Part shown: positions 18,234-35,287 of the stretch, in pieces
How the letters are laid out: each line of letters starts with the position of its first letter
Numbering within the stretch: the stretch's first letter is position 1
Assembly (NCBI GenBank): GCA_003159675.1
Contig: PLQC01000019.1
Coordinates: forward strand, 1 to 35,809
Direction: 5' to 3'
From: Limisphaerales bacterium
Lineage (GTDB): Bacteria > Verrucomicrobiota > Verrucomicrobiia > Limisphaerales > BOG-1460
Length of the DNA stretch: 35,809 nucleotides
Translations under genes and position numbers: made by a program
Notes under the pieces: generated by a model
Told to the model about the DNA's origin: nothing
Database searches by the model: none
The model's input: the letters and a program-made list of their open reading frames with translations, nothing else

Positions 18234-19406
18234 ATGCGCGTCACGCACGTCATCACGCGTTTGATCGTCGGTGGCGCCCAGGAAAACACCGTGGCAACCG
18301 TTCTGGGCCTGGGGCGCAGACCAGGATGGGAAGTGAACCTGATTTCGGGACCGTCCACCGGCCTCGAAGGATCGCTCGCCCCGGCGCTTTCCGGGTCCCC
18401 CGCGGCCCTGACAATCCTCCCGCAACTCGTGCGGCCGATCCGCCCGTGGAAGGATTGGATTGCGTTGTGGCGCCTCACGGAACTGTTTCGTGGAAGCAAA
18501 CCCGGGATCGTTCACACGCACAGTGGCAAGGCCGGATTCCTGGGCCGCCTCGCGGCCGCCAAGGCCGGCGTGCCGATCATCGTGCATACAATCCATGGAC
18601 CATCGTTCGGCCCGTTCCAGGGACCGCTCGCCAACACGCTGTTCAAACTGGCGGAACGGCGCGCCGGCCGGGTCACGACCCATTTCGTCGCGGTCGCCAA
18701 TGCCATGACCAGCCAATACCTCGACGCCGGCATCGGCAGGCGTGAGCAGTATTCCCGGATCGTGAGCGGGTTCGACGTCGGAGCCTGCCTGTCCGCCGTC
18801 AACGATCCGCAACGACGCGCGCGCTGGGGCCTGGCTCCCGAAGACATCGTCGTTGGCATAATCGCCAGGCTGTTTAAATTGAAAGGCCACGAGGATCTCT
18901 TCGCAATCGCGCCCGCGCTGCTGCGGCAGTGTCCGCGCATCCGGTTTCTCCTTGTCGGGGATGGGGCGTGGCGGGCGCGGTTCGAAAACAAAGCGCGTTC
19001 GCTCGGTTTGAAACAACAGTTTGTGTTCACCGGACTGGTCGATCCGCGCGAAATCCCGGGCCTGATCGGGATCATGGACATCGTTGTGCACCTGTCACGG
19101 CGGGAAGGTTTGCCCCGAGCCCTGCCCCAGGCGCTGGCGGCCGCCCGGCCGGTCGTCGCCTACGACTGCGACGGCGCAAGGGAGGTTTGCCTTGAAAACG
19201 AAACCGGTTTTCTCCTGCGCCCGGGTGATTTGCCGGGATTGACGGATCGGGTGCTCCGCCTGGCCGCCGATGCCGGCTTGCGCGAGAAACTCGGGAAACA
19301 CGGACGGAACCTGGTGAAAGACGAATTTCGTGTGGAACGAATGATCGACGACCTGGAACACCTCTATCGGAAACTCGCCGGATCCCACGGGATCCAATCG
19401 CCGTGA
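18234..19406 (+). CDS. Family 4 glycosyltransferase
   Basis: This is a retaining GT-B glycosyltransferase of 390 aa that would transfer a sugar from a nucleotide donor during envelope polysaccharide synthesis. The N-terminal half has the acceptor-side start VTHVITRLIVGGAQENT and IVHTHSGKAGFLGRLAA. The C-terminal half carries the donor site: VVGIIARLFKLKGHEDLF, RFLLVGDGAWR, FTGLVDPREIPGLIGIMDIVVHLSRREGLPRALPQALA and a DCDGAREV loop. In the EX7E donor motif the second Glu is a Gln (EGLPRALPQ), a variant seen in some GT4 groups. No signal or membrane segment is seen, so it is cytoplasmic or peripheral. Its stop overlaps the start of the next gene in GTGA, which indicates translational coupling with the WecA-like gene. 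Confidence 0.88.
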   Translation: MRVTHVITRLIVGGAQENTVATVLGLGRRPGWEVNLISGPSTGLEGSLAPALSGSPAALTILPQLVRPIRPWKDWIALWRLTELFRGSKPGIVHTHSGKAGFLGRLAAAKAGVPIIVHTIHGPSFGPFQGPLANTLFKLAERRAGRVTTHFVAVANAMTSQYLDAGIGRREQYSRIVSGFDVGACLSAVNDPQRRARWGLAPEDIVVGIIARLFKLKGHEDLFAIAPALLRQCPRIRFLLVGDGAWRARFENKARSLGLKQQFVFTGLVDPREIPGLIGIMDIVVHLSRREGLPRALPQALAAARPVVAYDCDGAREVCLENETGFLLRPGDLPGLTDRVLRLAADAGLREKLGKHGRNLVKDEFRVERMIDDLEHLYRKLAGSHGIQSP

Positions 19407-20425
19407 ATTTTCCAGTCGCTCTTTATCTGCTCGCCGGGCTGGCCGCGTTCGCGACGGCCCTGATCGCGCTGCCATTCTGGAGCAGGTGGTGCCTGCGTGC
19501 CGGCCTGGTGGACGATCCCGGCGGCCGCAAAACGCACGCAAACCGCATGCCTCTGGCGGGAGGGTTAACGATCATGACCGCCTTGATTGTCCCGACACTG
19601 GCGGGGGCGCTGGCGGTCATTCTCGCGGGCCTACACCCGGCCACGCAACCCGGCGTCCCACCCCATTCCGCGCCCTTTTTCGCCTCCAACCCGGTTCCGC
19701 TCCTCACTCACGGGCTCGAAAGGCGAGGCGTCGAACTCTCGGCCGTTCTCATCGGCGCCTTCGGCCTGCTCGTGGTGGGGTTGCTGGATGACAGGAACGA
19801 ATTGAAGCCCGCGACGAAATTCGCCGGCCAACTGCTGGTGGCTGCCCTCGTTGCCGCGGCGGGCGCCCGGATCACGCTGTTTGTGCCCAACCTGGTTTTC
19901 AGCTACACCGTGACCATCCTTTGGATCGTTACGGTCATCAACGCCTTCAATTTCATGGACAACATGAACGGCCTTTGCGGAGGCCTGGGAGCGATCGCCG
20001 CCTTTTATTTCGCGGCGATTTCCGCCGCGGCCGGGCAGTACCTTGTGACCCTCATCGCCGCGTTGACCTGCGGTGCGCTGCTCGGTTTTCTGCCGCACAA
20101 TTTTCCCCGCGCAAAGACGTTCCTGGGTGACTCCGGAAGTCACCTGGTCGGATACCTTGTCGCGATACTCGCGATTCTCCCCCATTTTTATACACGAAAA
20201 AATCCCCACCTCCTGGCAGTCTTGAATCCGCTGCTGATTCTGGCGGTCCCGCTCGGGGATTTGGCCTGGGTTGTTCTCCTTCGCTTGCGGACCCACAGGC
20301 CATTTTATGTCGGCGATACCAGCCATCTCTCCCACCAACTGGTCCGACTCGGGCTGTCGCGTATGGGGGCGGTGGTGTTGATCTGGCTTCTGGCGGGACT
20401 TCTCGGCGCGCTCAGTTTGATTTGA
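19403..20425 (+). CDS. WecA/MraY-family phosphoglycosyl transferase
   Basis: This polytopic membrane enzyme (340 aa, about ten or eleven helices) transfers a sugar phosphate from a UDP-sugar to undecaprenyl phosphate, starting a lipid-linked glycan. The signature motifs are present in order: RKTHANRMPLAGG, the Mg2+-binding LLDDRNELKP, VINAFNFMDNMNGLCGG, FLGDSGSHLVGY, and the His-rich loop near DTSHLSHQLVRLGL. This fits the WecA/TagO/WbpL branch better than MraY, because genes for peptidoglycan synthesis are absent around it and the loop sequences are shorter. The start is GTG 19403, overlapping the GT4 stop by four bases. With the upstream GT4 and membrane/TPR protein it forms a small envelope-glycan unit. 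Confidence 0.88.
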   Translation: MNFPVALYLLAGLAAFATALIALPFWSRWCLRAGLVDDPGGRKTHANRMPLAGGLTIMTALIVPTLAGALAVILAGLHPATQPGVPPHSAPFFASNPVPLLTHGLERRGVELSAVLIGAFGLLVVGLLDDRNELKPATKFAGQLLVAALVAAAGARITLFVPNLVFSYTVTILWIVTVINAFNFMDNMNGLCGGLGAIAAFYFAAISAAAGQYLVTLIAALTCGALLGFLPHNFPRAKTFLGDSGSHLVGYLVAILAILPHFYTRKNPHLLAVLNPLLILAVPLGDLAWVVLLRLRTHRPFYVGDTSHLSHQLVRLGLSRMGAVVLIWLLAGLLGALSLI

Positions 20426-25750: not shown

Positions 25751-26084
25751 AACTTGGTTCTAATCTACTCTAGCACCACCCCGCCCGGGTTGCCAGTTGA
25801 ATCCGCCCAATTCGCCAGTCACGGCATCACAGGTTCCGGCTTCAGCAGGAATTGGGAGTGATCCATCGCCGGGTTCAGGTCTCCCGGCAGTACATCGGGC
25901 ACCGCGCCATGGTGCTTGATTTTTCGACATGTCAAACAATCACGGGCCGCGCGGGCGTCCTGTTCCTAAACATAATATCCTGGAGATCGGAATCCCGAGG
26001 CGAAACCGCGTTGGCCTTCGTATTGCTTCTGAGTCCGGGCGTCGGAACGGGCCTGGAAACGGCCCTGTCCAAACGAGACAGAGC
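25751..26084. other. Intergenic region with a minus-strand coding remnant
   Basis: This 334-bp region separates the divergent Tyr/Gly-rich and receiver genes. Its left third should hold the promoter of the secreted-protein gene; no convincing -35/-10 pair was found. The stretch 25819-25965 is protein-like on the minus strand (see separate entry). On the plus strand an open frame from 25852 ends in an ATGA overlap with the receiver gene, but its translation does not look like a protein. Confidence 0.5.
25819..25965 (-). pseudogene. Possible C-terminal gene remnant, unknown family
   Basis: Reading the minus strand from 25965 to the stop at 25819 gives 48 residues that look like the end of a real protein: a CLTC pair, KIKHHGAVPDVLPGDLNP, then MDHSQFLLKPEPVMP and a stop. 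A TAG lies directly upstream (25966-25968) and no ATG fits, so it is either a decayed 3' end or a frameshifted gene. I do not recognise the family. Confidence 0.3.
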
Positions 26085-26534
26085 ATGACAAAACACGGGA
26101 CAGTATTACTGATCGAAGATGACGCAGGCGACGTGTTGCGCATCAAGAAGGCATTTGCCGATGCCGAACTGGTTTACCCGCTGACGACGGTCAATTCGTG
26201 CAAAGACGCGGTCGCCTATTTCAGCGGCGATGGCGTTTACGCAAACCGTGACTCGTTTCCGCTTCCATTTCTCGTGCTGCTGAATTTGAAACTGGCCCGT
26301 GAAGAGGGCTTCGCCGTGCTGCGATGGTTGTACGAACGCCCGGGTCTGCGGAAGAAATTCCCCGTGGTGGTCTGGAGCGCAGGCGACCCGGCGCAGGACA
26401 TCCAATTGGCCTATGAACTCGGCGCGCAATCCTGCCTCGTGAAGCCGATCGACCACCAACAGTTGCGCACCGTCGTTCAACGCGTGAAGGATTATTGGAT
26501 CGAGCTGAACCTGCTTCCGGGAGATCTCCTTTAG
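26085..26534 (+). CDS. Receiver-only response regulator lacking the phospho-Asp
   Basis: This 149-aa protein is a single CheY-like receiver domain of the Rcp1 type with no output domain. The acidic pocket is present (LLIEDDAGD, E11-D12-D13), as are the switch Ser (VVVWSAGD, S98) and the conserved Lys (CLVKPID, K120). The phospho-acceptor position, normally Asp in LLDLNLP, is Asn (VLLNLKLAREEG, N67; codon AAT). It therefore probably cannot be phosphorylated in the usual way and may act as a constitutive or ligand-controlled adaptor. I chose ATG 26085; an upstream in-frame ATG at 25929 adds 52 Arg/Gly/Pro-rich residues unlike a receiver. pdxH follows after 55 bp on the same strand. No histidine kinase is adjacent. 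Confidence 0.85.
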   Translation: MTKHGTVLLIEDDAGDVLRIKKAFADAELVYPLTTVNSCKDAVAYFSGDGVYANRDSFPLPFLVLLNLKLAREEGFAVLRWLYERPGLRKKFPVVVWSAGDPAQDIQLAYELGAQSCLVKPIDHQQLRTVVQRVKDYWIELNLLPGDLL

Positions 26535-30116: not shown

Positions 30117-32366
30117 TCAGGCTGGGCAGAATTCGATTGTGCCAGATTCGTGCCGCTCGGGGATGAACTCCTGCGCCGTCTTGAGTTTCTCGAGCCTGTG
30201 GCGCAGGGCAAACGTGAGTGCTTTGACGGTGATCTCAGCTTTGAGGAATGGTTTCGGGGTGATGTCGCTCGCACCGCACAGCGCGCATTGGCTGAGGAAC
30301 TTCGAGTCGGTGTAATTGGTGACCAGCACCACGGGCGTATGGCTGTTGGCTGTGGTCTTGTGAATCCTCGAGCAGGCCGTGAAACCATCCATGCCCGGCA
30401 TGAGCACGTCCAGGAAAATCACATCGTAGAATTGTTGTGCGGCCAGGACGAGCGCCGCCTCGCCGTTCTCCGCGAGGTCGGGTTTCTCGAAGGACATTTG
30501 CAGCGCGCCGGCGATTGCGCGGCGGGCGATGAGGTCGTCATCCACCACCAGGATGCGGATAGGCGGGTTGGCAACCCTGTCCATTTTAACCCCCTTCACG
30601 CACAAATCATTGAGCAACTCCACCGCAGCGGCGACGGTCTGAAGCGCGGCCCCGGTAAAATATCTGGGTCCCTCAAGGAGTTTCTTGAGCAGCCCTTCCA
30701 GAGCGGCACTCATTTGAAACACAGGACGCAGTCCGGCAAGATCGGCATTGAGCGTCAAAGAGTGGATGCGGAGGAACAGATTTCCCAACATTTCCAGCCG
30801 CACGTCCGCATCCGCATTTTGACTTATCTCCTGGATGAAATCCCGCAGCGCTCCAACCTGCGCAGGTGCGCGGGTGAAAAACGCCTCGGCATACGCGTTT
30901 GACTCCTGAAATGTATTTCGCGCCTGGACAGGTCTGTCGCCGGTGGGCGGGGCGGGCGACGCATCCCGCAGGCCGGAGACAACCAAACCAACGGGTTCCG
31001 GAAGTGACGATGGAAGCCCGTCCGAATCGACGGATCCCTTGGAAGCATCGGCGAGCGGGTCGTTTGCAAACAGCCGGCGGTGCAGGGCGAGCGTGAGTGC
31101 TTTTACAGTGATTTCAAAAGTGAGGAATGGTTTTGCGATGAGATCGTTCCCGCCGCAGAGGGTTGATTCGGCGCGCGCTTTGAAATCGCTCTGGCAGGTG
31201 ACAAACACCACCGGCGTGGCACCGTTGCACTCGGTGGCACGGATTTTTGAGCAGAGTTCAAAACCGTCCATACCCGGCATCTGCACATCCAGGAAAATCA
31301 CATCGTAGGGATGTTCCGAGGCCAGAACCAGCGCCGCCTCGCCATTCTCCGCGAGGTCGGGCTGATTGAACGCCCTCTTCACCGCGCAGGACACAGCATG
31401 CCGGCTGATGCGGTCGTCGTCCACCACAAGAAGCCGGAATGGAGGATTGGTCACAAGGTCCGAGTTCAATCCGTACACGCATAGTTCGTGGAGAAGATCC
31501 AGGCCGCTGCCGACGGTTCGCAGGGTGGATTGGGTGACGTCGCTGGCTTTGCCGGTGAGTTGTTTGACAAGCCCCTCCACGGCGCAGGCCATTTGCCACG
31601 CGGGGCGTAATTCCTGAAGGCCGGCCAGGCCTTTCAGATCACCGATGAGACGGCAGAGGTCGGCCAGAGCTTTTTGCCGGGCCGCCGTGCCTGATGCCCG
31701 GCAGATTTCCTCATGACACTTGTGCAACGCCACGAGCAGTTCTGGTGATCTGCCAAAGAATTCTTCGAGCGTATTGCATTCCGTCCTGCGCCCCGCATTG
31801 CCTGCCTCCCGCGGCACTGCGTGATCGGGGATGACGGTGGAGGAGCGGCGCGCAGGAGTCGGTCCAACCCGGAATGTCGCAAGAAACTCCGAAAAGGCTT
31901 CCTCCTCCGCGCGAACGTTCGACGCAAAGCCTTCCCCAGCCGGGCGTGAATACATCCAGGGGTTGAATTTCGTGTTGATGGAATCAAGGATTTGAGGGCC
32001 AAGTTTCCGGGCGGCCAGGATCCCGGCAAGGACACACACGGTGGCGAGCAAAAGATTCTGGAAGACCACTCCGGCAGGGGCACCCAAGTGCTGCGCTCCG
32101 GTCGTCTCTCTGGTCCGGGTGCCTGACTTGCGTGCAGGGGCGGATGCCACGGCACCTTCCCCGACGGCAGCAGGGATCGACACCCGTTTCCGGAAGCGTT
32201 CCTGTTCCGCTCTGGCTATCCGCTGATACATCTCCCGATCATGAGAAGTCGGCTCAGGCGGCGACCTTTCGAACTCGGAGGAATAGGGGTCAGGGGCTCC
32301 GCCTGTTTGGACGCAACAAAACACTGCCACGAGAACAAGGAATCGGAACAGGAACGCCGATCTCAT
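30117..32366 (-). CDS. Membrane-anchored tandem Hpt-like/receiver protein
   Basis: The 749-aa protein begins with a signal peptide (hydrophobic 5-20), a charged exported or linker part, and a membrane segment at about 104-119. Two copies of one module follow: an Hpt-like four-helix domain (about 198-302 and 490-595) and a CheY-type receiver (310-430 and 603-722). Both receivers are complete: DDD 316-318, D360 (VIFLDVQMPGMDG) and K412 in the first; DDD 609-611, D653 and K705 in the second. The Hpt signature HxLKGxA is split: copy 1 keeps LKG-x-A but has Gly (G242) at the His position; copy 2 keeps the His (H535, HSLTLNA) but not LKG. No kinase or output domain is present, so it may be a phosphate sink or scaffold. 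It lies 109 bp downstream of the prepilin-like genes on the same strand. Confidence 0.8.
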   Translation of the reverse strand: MRSAFLFRFLVLVAVFCCVQTGGAPDPYSSEFERSPPEPTSHDREMYQRIARAEQERFRKRVSIPAAVGEGAVASAPARKSGTRTRETTGAQHLGAPAGVVFQNLLLATVCVLAGILAARKLGPQILDSINTKFNPWMYSRPAGEGFASNVRAEEEAFSEFLATFRVGPTPARRSSTVIPDHAVPREAGNAGRRTECNTLEEFFGRSPELLVALHKCHEEICRASGTAARQKALADLCRLIGDLKGLAGLQELRPAWQMACAVEGLVKQLTGKASDVTQSTLRTVGSGLDLLHELCVYGLNSDLVTNPPFRLLVVDDDRISRHAVSCAVKRAFNQPDLAENGEAALVLASEHPYDVIFLDVQMPGMDGFELCSKIRATECNGATPVVFVTCQSDFKARAESTLCGGNDLIAKPFLTFEITVKALTLALHRRLFANDPLADASKGSVDSDGLPSSLPEPVGLVVSGLRDASPAPPTGDRPVQARNTFQESNAYAEAFFTRAPAQVGALRDFIQEISQNADADVRLEMLGNLFLRIHSLTLNADLAGLRPVFQMSAALEGLLKKLLEGPRYFTGAALQTVAAAVELLNDLCVKGVKMDRVANPPIRILVVDDDLIARRAIAGALQMSFEKPDLAENGEAALVLAAQQFYDVIFLDVLMPGMDGFTACSRIHKTTANSHTPVVLVTNYTDSKFLSQCALCGASDITPKPFLKAEITVKALTFALRHRLEKLKTAQEFIPERHESGTIEFCPA

Positions 32367-32475
32367 TCACAGTGCCCTCGCCGCGCGAACAGTTCCACGA
32401 AAGCTCCGGTTTCGGGTAACTGATTCGGAGCGGCCTTTCAGGCTGGAGTTCATTGGCGTGCCTAAACAATGGCTG

Positions 32476-34212
32476 TCAGTTGACCGGAGGTGTTGTCTGG
32501 TTGGGAGCCACGGTGGCCCACTGACCGCGAATTACAGTCTCCAAACTGGGAGTCAGCGGAGGAAGCTTCGCGGGGTTGTTGAAGTTGACGTCAAAAGTCC
32601 AGTTACGCGCCGGGGGTGCGTAAACGTTCGCGTTGCCCCAGATATTGGTGGCATACTGGCTTGGAAACATCTTCACCATCGAACCGTTATAAGTGAAAGG
32701 GTTGGCCAGACCCCAGGTCTCAAGGAAACGAGGGAAGTTTTCCATTCCGCCGCCGTAATTGCCTCCGGCCGTGTCCACCGCACCGGCCAGGATGGCGGCG
32801 TTCACCGTGGTCGGAGTTGCATTGCGCGAGGCCACGGCGGCCTGGCTGTTTGCATCGGTCCAGTTCGCGGATAAAATCGTGACTGCATCGGCCACCAGCG
32901 ATGCGGGCAGTGTGGTCGTGGTGTTCGAGGTGCCCAGGTTCGCCGCGTTGGTCTGGTTGTAGTTTCCAAAGACGTAGAGTGGACTCGCGGTGGCGACCGT
33001 GAGTCCGCGCGGAGGCAGTTGCAGGCCGTTGAACACGCGAACGGCTCCGAGGTCGGTCCCCGTCAACGTCCGCTTATCCAAGACATAAATCGAGGACACA
33101 TCGAGCCCCCCCAGGGCGGTGCGCTCACTGGAATTGGTGGCGCTCCAGGCCGTGAGGCCGGCGATATTGATATCGATCGGCCGGATCGTCTTGCCCTCAC
33201 GCGCGTCGAAGAAGCTGTTTGTGGTTGAGACAAAGCCGTTCAACTGGTCAGCGGGGATGACGGTTGCGAAAGAGTTGAAGTCGCCGCTGGTCCCGCTGAT
33301 TCCGCTGCTGGAGACCACCAGCACCACATCGGACAGGTTATAATAACGTTCCCGACCCAGCGGCGAGTTGGGGTCTTCGAACGGCGGTGGGGGCTCGATG
33401 ATTTCCCGGACTGCGGTCGGGGTATTGGTGATGCCGATTGGAAGGCTCAACGCAGGCTGGTTGGGATCATGCACCCCATCGTAGGCCACCGAACCGGCGG
33501 GAGGCCCGCGACTGTCGAGCGGGCTGCGCTGAAACAGGATGTCGCCCACGGCAGTAACGGAGGATTCAAAGATCATAACGTTGTCCGGCTCGACATAGAG
33601 CTGACCGTTGGAATGGACCAGGCCGGTGATGGCGAAGGGTTGGCCGCAACTGATTTCCATGTCTCCCGTGGTGTACATGGCGAACTGGAATATCGGGATG
33701 CGGGTCAACTCCAGTTGCTGGAGCACTCCCCCGACGACGTCCTGGGCTGCGGAAGTCTGCCGGGCGTCGGAAACGATCGTGTAGAAGGAGGCGTAAGCAT
33801 TCAAGCCGGCGTAGCTGGAATTCTGGAGGATGAAATTGCTCGAGACGCCGGGTTGGACATAGGTCTGGCCGGTGTTTCCGCTGGCATCGTTGAACTCCCA
33901 ATCGGCCCAATAGGAAGAGTCCGACGCAAGGAGCGTCGTCTGGCGGTATGCGGTCAGATTGGCATTGACCAGGCCCTCGCCGCCGCTCAGAAAATCCCTT
34001 GAGATCATGGTGATTACTTTCTCGGTGTCGCCTTCGGCGGCGGCCACCGCACGGTAGTACTGATTCGACCGATAGTTGAGTCGTGCATTATTGGCCGAGT
34101 AGCTCAGAACACCGGCCACCGTGGCCAGGGCAATGCTGGTCATGATCATCGTCAGCGCCAGGGCGCTGCCGCACCGGCCACGCTTTTGAGTTGGGAGAAG
34201 AGTCGTCATCAT
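32476..34212 (-). CDS. PilX-like pilus assembly/secretion protein with long tail
   Basis: The 578-aa protein opens with a short basic segment and one hydrophobic helix (SALALTMIMTSIALATVAGVLSYSANNARLNYRSN). YYRAVAAAEGDTEKVITMISRDFL follows, the usual opening of PilX-like minor pilin or assembly proteins that lack the G/A-FTLVE prepilin site. The remainder is a long exported Asn/Thr/Ser/Gly-rich region, probably beta-rich, with a segment describing directional text such as FAITGLVHSNGQLYVEPDN typical of this group in Verrucomicrobia. It starts two bases after the PilW-like stop, so it is the third gene of a tight operon. Its exact role (minor pilus tip component or pseudopilus cargo) cannot be told. 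Confidence 0.65.
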   Translation of the reverse strand: MMTTLLPTQKRGRCGSALALTMIMTSIALATVAGVLSYSANNARLNYRSNQYYRAVAAAEGDTEKVITMISRDFLSGGEGLVNANLTAYRQTTLLASDSSYWADWEFNDASGNTGQTYVQPGVSSNFILQNSSYAGLNAYASFYTIVSDARQTSAAQDVVGGVLQQLELTRIPIFQFAMYTTGDMEISCGQPFAITGLVHSNGQLYVEPDNVMIFESSVTAVGDILFQRSPLDSRGPPAGSVAYDGVHDPNQPALSLPIGITNTPTAVREIIEPPPPFEDPNSPLGRERYYNLSDVVLVVSSSGISGTSGDFNSFATVIPADQLNGFVSTTNSFFDAREGKTIRPIDINIAGLTAWSATNSSERTALGGLDVSSIYVLDKRTLTGTDLGAVRVFNGLQLPPRGLTVATASPLYVFGNYNQTNAANLGTSNTTTTLPASLVADAVTILSANWTDANSQAAVASRNATPTTVNAAILAGAVDTAGGNYGGGMENFPRFLETWGLANPFTYNGSMVKMFPSQYATNIWGNANVYAPPARNWTFDVNFNNPAKLPPLTPSLETVIRGQWATVAPNQTTPPVN

Positions 34213-34214
34213 CG

Positions 34215-34823
34215 TTATAGAGCACGCCGGGTCACCGAAGTTTCAAGCTTGTAGTAATCGGGAACCGGGAGCAGGGGTTGTGGCTGATAGAATTCGAGGG
34301 TCAGGTGGATCACGCGGTTGTTCTGGCTGTTGGTCAGCACATTGCCCAGATAGTCCTGAGCGCGAAAGACCATCGTGTTGGTGACCGTCTGCGCAATAAT
34401 CGCGGTGGTTCCCGGTGTGCTCGTGGTGCGCCGGAAGCTGTTGTCGATGGGGTCGACAAAATAGACGATGAAGTTTGCGGCATTTGTCGTCGGCTGGATC
34501 AACAAACCGCTGCCTGTCTGCGATACTCCATCGAGCAGCGCTGTGAATTCGCCATTCGTCGAAACGTTGCCGATCCAGACGCTGGTGCAGGTCCGGATTT
34601 CATCAGTGATTTTCCCGAGGGCGTTGCGGGCGCCGTCGCTGGCGTTGAGCTTGGTTTCGACTGTCTTCTCCATCTTCAAGCCGAACACATGGGCGGTGAG
34701 GATTCCGGCCACCAGGAGGAGGAACACCGACACCGCGACGAGGAGTTCCGCCAAGGTGAACGCGGCAGTCGACTTTGTCGGGGTGCTCTGGCGTGAGCCT
34801 GGAAAACGAAGATGCACTTTCAT
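34215..34823 (-). CDS. PilW-like prepilin
   Basis: This 202-aa protein has a type IV prepilin N-terminus: a basic leader of 21 residues ending in Ala, then FTLAELLVAVSVFLLLVAGILTAHV with the conserved Glu at +5 of the mature chain. The cleavage residue is Ala rather than the usual Gly (AAFTLAE). The soluble part (EKTVETKLNASDGARNALGKITDEIRTCTSVWIG) is like PilW/PulJ minor pilins. Its ATG overlaps the stop of the preceding PilV-like gene (ATGA), indicating translational coupling. The prepilin peptidase needed to process it is outside the window. Confidence 0.8.
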   Translation of the reverse strand: MKVHLRFPGSRQSTPTKSTAAFTLAELLVAVSVFLLLVAGILTAHVFGLKMEKTVETKLNASDGARNALGKITDEIRTCTSVWIGNVSTNGEFTALLDGVSQTGSGLLIQPTTNAANFIVYFVDPIDNSFRRTTSTPGTTAIIAQTVTNTMVFRAQDYLGNVLTNSQNNRVIHLTLEFYQPQPLLPVPDYYKLETSVTRRAL

Positions 34824-35287
34824 TGGTCAGGAGCGCGGCAAGTCTCGATCGTGTTGGTAAATAGCTGAGAACCCTTGAAGCTCCAGATGCAGTCCACGCG
34901 AACGCGCCTTAGGGGCGGGTTGGCGGAGATTTGTGAGATCTGAGTGATATTGGTGGCATAGACGATCCCCGAACCCGAACCGGAATGGTCCAACACGACG
35001 ACTTCATTTGGAAAATTCGTGACTACGAGATCATCGACGTTCGGCCAACTCGCCGTATCCCATGTGGCACTGCGTATTTCCTCGATGCGGGCCATCGCCT
35101 CGGCGTTGGCCGCAAGCGATAGAGCCCATTTCTGCGCGGAAGTTATGCTGAAGATGTACCCCGAGACAATGCCTGCCACCGCCATGGTGGCGAGGGCCAA
35201 TGCCACGACCACCTCCACCAGCGTCATCCCGGCCTGAATACGCAGTGGCAGCGACCCACACGTCTGCTTTAAATATCTCATTTCCAT
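34820..35287 (-). CDS. PilV-like prepilin
   Basis: This 155-aa protein is the first gene of the prepilin-like operon. A basic leader is followed by QAGMTLVEVVVALALATMAVAGIVSGYIF, the classical prepilin cleavage site after Gly with Met at +1 and Glu at +5. The globular part (KWALSLAANAEAMARIEEIRSATWD) resembles PilV/GspI-type minor pilins that help prime pilus assembly. I use ATG 35287, which has GGAAG six bases upstream; ATGs at 35281 and 35323 are alternatives. The stop overlaps the PilW-like start by four bases. Upstream lies a 0.5-kb leader with inverted repeats. Confidence 0.8.
   Translation of the reverse strand: MEMRYLKQTCGSLPLRIQAGMTLVEVVVALALATMAVAGIVSGYIFSITSAQKWALSLAANAEAMARIEEIRSATWDTASWPNVDDLVVTNFPNEVVVLDHSGSGSGIVYATNITQISQISANPPLRRVRVDCIWSFKGSQLFTNTIETCRAPDQ

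What the first reader, a model, noticed from the sequence alone, without database searches (positions are those of the whole stretch)
32476..35287. Prepilin-like trio without assembly machinery, next to a signalling protein
PilV-like, PilW-like and PilX-like genes overlap or abut (ATGA overlap, then a 2-bp gap), and the tandem Hpt/REC gene follows 109 bp downstream on the same strand. No ATPase, secretin or prepilin peptidase is in view. The PilX-like protein has an unusually long Asn/Thr/Ser-rich exported tail, which may be a pseudopilus tip cargo regulated by the downstream protein.
Basis: partly seen in the sequence, partly recalled or inferred. Interest (0 to 1): 0.55.

Follow-up and report, generated by a model that had tools for sequence, protein, structure and literature searches.

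The report
Pilus-tip genes with dedicated membrane switch
Three genes for what looks like the tip of a bacterial surface filament are followed by a fourth gene for a membrane-bound signalling protein, and because this signalling gene sits beside such tip genes again and again in related bacteria, the cell probably uses it to control or monitor that particular tip.

Summary
The machinery is missing only locally: the genome encodes ATPases, PilC-like proteins, a prepilin peptidase and, beside a paralogous B-C-A set, PilM-N-O-P and a secretin. A is not a loose tail: its model (pLDDT 92.9) is a pilin with a beta-solenoid inserted before the last strand, closest to the Thermus tip pilin ComZ. R is predicted to be membrane-anchored, with two four-helix/receiver units, conserved phospho-acceptor pockets and no output domain. 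A search of 293 same-order genomes gave 23 strong R genes. Twenty have testable flanks: 17 lie directly behind a co-directional B-C-A trio (9 helped build the profile; 8 did not) and 3 border pilin genes in another arrangement. In one genome R is fused to X, the gene that follows A in many other loci. The R-trio link is therefore real and apparently order-specific. That R gates or senses this tip is inference; the ligand is unknown. The acidic solenoid argues against a simple DNA receptor.

The parts
34820..35287 (-). B: PilV/GspI-like prepilin, 155 aa, class III signal ...QAG/MTLVEVV with Glu+5
   Evidence: 36% to in-genome paralogue
34215..34823 (-). C: PilW/GspJ-like prepilin, 202 aa, ...TAA/FTLAELL with Glu+5; ATGA overlap with B
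   Evidence: 34% to in-genome paralogue
32476..34212 (-). A: 578-aa PilX/GspK/ComZ-like large pilin; no Glu+5; 2 bp after C
   Evidence: weak HpsA C-terminal match E 9e-13; AlphaFold model; ComZ match
33961..34173 (-). A residues 14-84: long pilin alpha-1 helix
32548..33693 (-). A residues about 174-555: beta-solenoid insertion, ice-binding-protein-like fold, between the penultimate (160-173) and last (556-568) strands of the pilin sheet
32367..32475 (-). 109-bp gap between A and R; no promoter- or terminator-like consensus site found
30117..32366 (-). R: 749-aa membrane-anchored protein, hydrophobic N-terminus - about 80 aa - TM - (four-helix bundle - REC) x2, no output domain
32013..32069 (-). 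R residues 100-118: predicted transmembrane segment
   Evidence: hydropathy
31482..31769 (-). R Hpt-like four-helix bundle 1, residues 200-295, without the His
31068..31433 (-). R REC1, residues 312-433 (VDDD, FLDVQM, KPF)
30603..30920 (-). R Hpt-like four-helix bundle 2, residues 483-588, with His (RIHSL)
30168..30554 (-). R REC2, residues 605-733 (VDDD, FLDVLM, KPF)

Best explanation
B, C and A are the tip (priming) complex of a type IV filament: B in the GspI/PilV place, C in the GspJ/PilW place, and A at the very tip in the GspK/PilX/ComZ place, with its beta-solenoid facing outward. The filament would be assembled by the shared machinery encoded elsewhere in the genome. R is an inner-membrane response regulator dedicated to this tip. 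Its N-terminal part faces the periplasm, where the prepilins wait in the membrane. Its two receiver domains are phosphorylated in the cytoplasm by a kinase encoded elsewhere. With no output domain, R most likely works by protein contact, letting phosphorylation decide whether this tip, rather than a paralogous one, starts a filament. Shown: gene order, fold of A (model), domain make-up of R, conservation of the R-trio link, the X-R fusion, presence of machinery. Inferred: topology, tip position, contact between R and the trio, the gating direction, the kinase. About 0.85 for the anatomy and genetic link; about 0.4 for gating as against sensing.
For: A models at pLDDT 92.9; Foldseek's best solved match is ComZ, E 1.7e-7, VIA Z 14.4 over 368 residues (rmsd 10.8, two domains). 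The insertion lies between penultimate and last strand, as PMC6561018 describes for ComZ (passages). A lacks Glu+5 in 70 of 70 relatives; B has it in 53 of 65 and C in 52 of 64 (some misses there are over-extended frames). R genes of at least 377 bits: 23 places in 17 of 293 same-order genomes. Of 20 testable, 17 lie directly behind a co-directional trio and 3 border pilin genes otherwise; of the 11 testable places not in the profile, 8 and 3. X-R fusion E 5.9e-42. REC pockets VDD[DE], FxD and KP are kept in nearly all of 40 receivers listed. Machinery. Precedent for minor pilins acting on a membrane two-component protein: FimS-AlgR (PMC5979040, passages).
Against: No experiment. Most trios have no R (R directly downstream in 8 of 78 and 8 of 68 testable loci of two overlapping sets), so R is not needed for the trio as such. 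In this genome the paralogous trio has its R-like gene upstream, not downstream. R's model is modest (pLDDT 67.6), its N-terminal part is poorly modelled, and topology rests on hydropathy alone. Bundle 1 lacks the His and bundle 2 has Asn or Gln in some relatives, so phosphotransfer by the bundles is doubtful.
Confidence: 0.5

Rival explanations
1. R is an inventory sensor, not a gate: its membrane part binds free B-C-A in the inner membrane and changes the phosphorylation state of its receivers, feeding a wider phosphorelay that adjusts gene expression, in the manner of FimS or PilS with pilins.
For: In P. aeruginosa FimS interacts with minor pilins and responds to their loss (PMC5979040, passages). 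R has no output domain, which fits a relay part; bundle 2 keeps its His in the window and several relatives.
Against: R has no kinase domain, so it would need a separate kinase; none is encoded beside it. His is Asn or Gln in several relatives.
Confidence: 0.25
2. The trio is a competence tip: A is a ComZ-like DNA receptor and the quartet serves DNA uptake.
For: A's closest solved fold is ComZ, a DNA-binding tip pilin. A ComEC-family protein is encoded in the genome.
Against: The last 495 residues of A are acidic (pI 4.4, 4 Lys, net -16), while ComZ binding was assigned to two lysines (PMC6561018). ComEC is widespread: 10 of 14 control genomes. A shared fold does not show a shared ligand.
Confidence: 0.15
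3. The trio is the tip of a secretion pseudopilus (type II-like, or HpsA-D-like polysaccharide export) rather than of an extended pilus.
For: All 70 A-family rows match NCBIfam HpsA, 4 match GspK. HpsA-D are a membrane protein and pseudopilins thought to help polysaccharide export (PMC6495340, passages). Sequence alone does not separate pilus from pseudopilus.
Against: The window's HpsA match is to a short C-terminal stretch, 46.8 bits against a cut-off of 400. No cargo gene is linked; the window's glycosyltransferase genes at 18234-20425 are over 9 kb from R.
Confidence: 0.2
4. R is an unrelated regulator that happens to follow the trio.
For: 109-bp gap, larger than those within the trio; most trios have no R.
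Against: Genome-wide R search: 20 of 20 testable strong R genes are beside pilin genes; 0 of 4 examined weaker relatives are; X-R fusion. The trios before R include very different A types.
Confidence: 0.05

Closest known systems
ComZ (with PilA1-3) of Thermus thermophilus
   Same: Large pilin with a beta-solenoid inserted between the last two strands of the pilin sheet, encoded beside a smaller minor pilin; best match of A's model (PMC6561018 abstract and passages)
   Different: 12% identity over the structural alignment; A's tail is acidic; no receiver protein is described with ComZ in the passages read
GspI-GspJ-GspK / PilV-PilW-PilX tip complexes
   Same: Three prepilins in a row, the largest last and lacking Glu+5
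   Different: A has a beta-solenoid where GspK has a helical insert (PMC6561018 passage); the R gene follows
HpsA-HpsD (hormogonium polysaccharide system)
   Same: A-family proteins match the HpsA model in 70 of 70 rows; pseudopilins encoded together
   Different: A is 578 aa against a 1503-position model and scores far below its cut-off; no Hps-type glycosyltransferases adjoin
Verru_Chthon cassette (NCBIfam TIGR02598, TIGR02599, TIGR02600)
   Same: Pilin-type cassettes of Verrucomicrobiota (the name's meaning is recalled); weak matches of B and C, and of 1 of 70 A rows
   Different: Matches of B and C are far below cut-off
FimS-AlgR with PilVWX in Pseudomonas aeruginosa
   Same: Membrane two-component protein tied to a minor-pilin operon (PMC5979040 passages)
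   Different: FimS is a sensor kinase; R has receivers and helical bundles but no kinase or DNA-binding domain

Membership tests
Type IV filament minor-pilin (tip) operon | Prepilin N-terminus: class III signal, hydrophobic alpha-1, Glu+5 in all but the tip subunit | tested here: met
   (window B and C with Glu+5; A without, 70 of 70 in the family)
Type IV filament minor-pilin (tip) operon | Assembly ATPase, platform protein, secretin and prepilin peptidase in the genome | tested here: met
   secretin ORF assigned by reading and by its place after PilM-N-O-P, not by a Pfam scan
Type IV filament minor-pilin (tip) operon | Subunits incorporated at the filament tip | not testable with these tools
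   Needs microscopy or biochemistry
ComZ-type solenoid pilin | Beta-solenoid inserted between penultimate and last strand of the pilin sheet | tested here: met
   Model secondary structure and alignment to 6qvi; predicted, not solved
ComZ-type solenoid pilin | DNA binding | not testable with these tools
   Acidic tail makes it less likely
HpsA equivalog (NF038301) | Score above the curated cut-off of 400 bits | tested here: not met
   46.8 bits
Verru_Chthon cassette B/C (TIGR02598, TIGR02599) | Score above the curated cut-offs (51.4, 256.5 bits) | tested here: not met
   14.3 and 14.1 bits
Response regulator (receiver) proteins | REC fold with acidic pocket, phospho-acceptor Asp and Lys | tested here: met
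   Pfam E 1.5e-44, fold, residues
Hpt phosphotransfer domain | Four-helix bundle with phospho-accepting His | tested here: inconclusive
   Bundles modelled; Pfam E 0.19; His absent in bundle 1, present in bundle 2 of the window, variable in relatives

The most novel reading that the evidence does not exclude
These bacteria carry several interchangeable pilus-tip cassettes for one shared assembly machine, and some cassettes bring their own membrane-bound receiver protein with a swappable periplasmic part. The receivers would form a tip-selection code: kinase signals choose which tip, and so which ligand, the next filament carries.
Probability: 0.3. Interest if true: 0.78.

Novelty: new variant of a known kind. 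Interest (0 to 1): 0.52.

Why it matters
Minor pilins decide what a type IV filament binds, but how a cell with several tip sets picks one is poorly understood (my judgement). A receiver family with no other visible output, found beside tip trios in every testable strong case and once fused to the gene that usually follows A, is a direct candidate for such a switch. Relatives of the solenoid pilin A are also common here: by sequence profile in 109 of 293 same-order genomes, with the fold modelled for one member.

Tried and rejected
Extending the contig to the right: impossible, the window is the whole contig C60. Family-level comparison: only the own genome is held. Wider distribution: no R at E 1e-100 or better in the other 386 genomes of a phylum sample, of which only one besides our own is listed as of the same order, so 'order-specific' rests on about 385 genomes outside it.

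Sequence search of solved structures with the A profile gave nothing credible (4 hits, E 0.16-0.31). Promoter/terminator scan: promoter-like matches no more than in shuffles and nothing in the A-R gap; this does not show co-transcription. A ComEA-type HHH_3 search gave two hits on contigs that also carry pilus ATPase genes, which I did not interpret. Contig-end overlap tests for other split loci gave none; one exact 141-bp overlap was found. Literature: searches for HpsA with pseudopilins, Verrucomicrobia with pili and PilM, ComZ/solenoid tips, Verru_Chthon, Verrucomicrobi with pilins and response regulators, membrane response regulators, ComZ with Verrucomicrobi, and Verrucomicrobi+pilin+Hpt listed no title or abstract describing this quartet; the held library lacks most subscription papers. 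VIA search of R's model was filled by receiver domains, so the bundles were barely tested. Idea dropped: R as a mere chance neighbour.

Full report
What is there. On the minus strand, B (34820-35287), C (34215-34823) and A (32476-34212) are packed by a 4-base overlap and a 2-bp gap, and R (30117-32366) follows after 109 bp. B and C carry prepilin signals with Glu+5. A has the hydrophobic prepilin-like start without it, as is usual for the tip subunit GspK (recalled). R holds two receiver domains; Pfam sees Hpt only at E 0.19.

The machinery is elsewhere, not absent. The window is an entire 35.8-kb contig of a 4.1-Mb, 182-contig genome. The same genome has 12 T2SSE stretches, one frame with two prepilin-peptidase stretches and 10 T2SSF stretches. 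A second B-C-A set lies on contig C141 (A 36% identical; C 34%; B 36%). There the order is R-like, B, C, A, X, PilM, PilN, PilO, a short gene in the PilP place and a secretin-like ORF. PilM is supported by Pfam and PilO weakly; PilN, PilP and the secretin are assigned by position and reading.

What A is. With 70 family members the model reaches pLDDT 92.9, pTM 0.87: helix 14-84, sheet strands, a solenoid, and a closing strand 556-568. Foldseek's only solved structure below E 0.001 is ComZ (two chains, E 1.7e-7 and 2.7e-7). VIA-align gives ComZ Z 14.4 over 368 residues with rmsd 10.8, so the domains probably agree but their relative placement does not. The solenoid alone matches ice-binding proteins (Z about 9-10, rmsd 3.2-4.6) and, more weakly, tapirin-type adhesins (Z 8.2, 7.2). 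In ComZ the solenoid is inserted between the penultimate and last strands, the nearest fold is GspK, and a tip position was argued (PMC6561018, abstract and passages). A therefore works like a tip pilin with a binding head. It is not shown to bind DNA, and its acidic tail speaks against a simple copy of ComZ's role.

What R is. Hydropathy puts two hydrophobic segments near the N-terminus (1-19 and 100-118). Of the 24 other R sequences listed with L003 and the weaker relatives L226-L229 set aside, 13 also show two there, 7 show one and 4, all fragments, show none. The model shows bundle-REC twice. The acidic pocket, phospho-acceptor Asp and Lys are kept in nearly all of the 40 receivers listed; L139, whose receiver has Thr for the Asp, was missed by that script's filter. 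Bundle 1 lacks His in the window and nearly all relatives. Bundle 2 has it in the window but Asn or Gln in six others.

Is the link real? Maps of 82 regions and 79 named loci (the two sets overlap) show B-C-A order nearly everywhere and two main followers of A: X, often with PilM-N-O-P-Q, or R. To lessen the bias of starting from A, I searched 293 same-order genomes with R. Twenty-three places in 17 genomes score at least 377 bits; the next is 312, and below it comes a widespread Hpt-like/REC protein, which in the four loci examined (L226-L229) lies by other receiver-bearing genes and not by pilins (one neighbour is a hybrid kinase by Pfam). Of the 23, three are cut by contig ends at the side that matters (L216, L218, L220). 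Seventeen have a trio's large gene directly upstream on the same strand; two of these show only A's end at a contig start (L213, L214), one relies on a contig overlap (below), and in L212 the large gene is a PilX-like ORF recognised by reading. The other three border pilin genes differently: L217 divergent from B-C, L215 upstream of B, L223 between a divergent trio and PilM-N-O-P-Q. Nine of the 17 had served to build the profile; of the 11 testable others the split is 8 and 3. Four of those eight trios carry A proteins that the A profile barely sees; two of them scanned hit DUF7305, and L212's has a different tail. So R keeps company with trios whose heads differ.

Fusion. In L130/L170 (one place) R is a 943-aa frame, and its N-terminal part is an X domain (E 5.9e-42 with a profile of 46 other X proteins). 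X sits directly after A in many trios, so R stands in X's place, and the fusion suggests that the two work at the same spot. In one genome the end of L133 and the start of L165 share exactly 141 bases, which gives B-C-A-R-B-C-A.

History. In a tree of 71 A proteins the window, eight R-linked relatives and L141 (contig ends before R) form one strongly supported group (SH-aLRT 100); the tenth R-linked A, L170, lies elsewhere. R joined trios, or was lost, more than once. The tree is a quick one without bootstraps.

How it may work. The tip complex is assembled first and primes the filament (recalled). An inner-membrane receiver protein that touches waiting prepilins could permit or block this. 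A precedent for signalling between minor pilins and a membrane two-component protein is FimS-AlgR (PMC5979040, passages). Gating is my first choice, inventory sensing second. No kinase is encoded beside R; the hybrid kinase next to the widespread Hpt-like/REC protein on C47 is a candidate donor, untested.

Novelty. Tip trios, ComZ, GspIJK and pilus-linked two-component systems are known. A dedicated membrane receiver family tied to solenoid-tip trios was not found in the searches made. I class it as a new variant of a known kind.

Noticed in passing
L133 end / L165 start: Two contigs of one MAG share an exact 141-base end, giving B-C-A-R-B-C-A in tandem.
   Followed up: partly
L212:8101-10800 (-): This R carries repeated CxxCxGxG-like motifs (DnaJ-type zinc finger, read by eye) in its predicted periplasmic part, unlike the window's R.
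   Followed up: no
L222:7654-9892 (-): A shortened A (425 aa) is followed at once by only the second half of R (334 aa), as if a deletion or misassembly had joined them.
   Followed up: no
L227:8688-12427 (-), own genome contig C47: Hybrid kinase (HisKA, HATPase, three REC, Hpt) beside a 431-aa Hpt-like/REC protein related to R; similar-sized receiver-bearing pairs in two other genomes examined (L228, L229).
   Followed up: partly
window 25929-26534 (+): Small 201-aa protein with a receiver domain upstream of a pyridoxamine oxidase gene.
   Followed up: no
window 18234-20425 (+): Two glycosyltransferase genes in a row after a 978-aa TPR protein, possibly a polysaccharide cluster.
   Followed up: no
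L135, L164, L174, L179: Records titled Akkermansia muciniphila carry trio genes grouping with those of Limisphaerales-type MAGs; the labels look doubtful.
   Followed up: no
L219:6508-7824, L224:2324-3613: Large pilins before R with a DUF7305 domain, one also weakly like an ice-binding adhesive domain: other head types in the same slot.
   Followed up: partly
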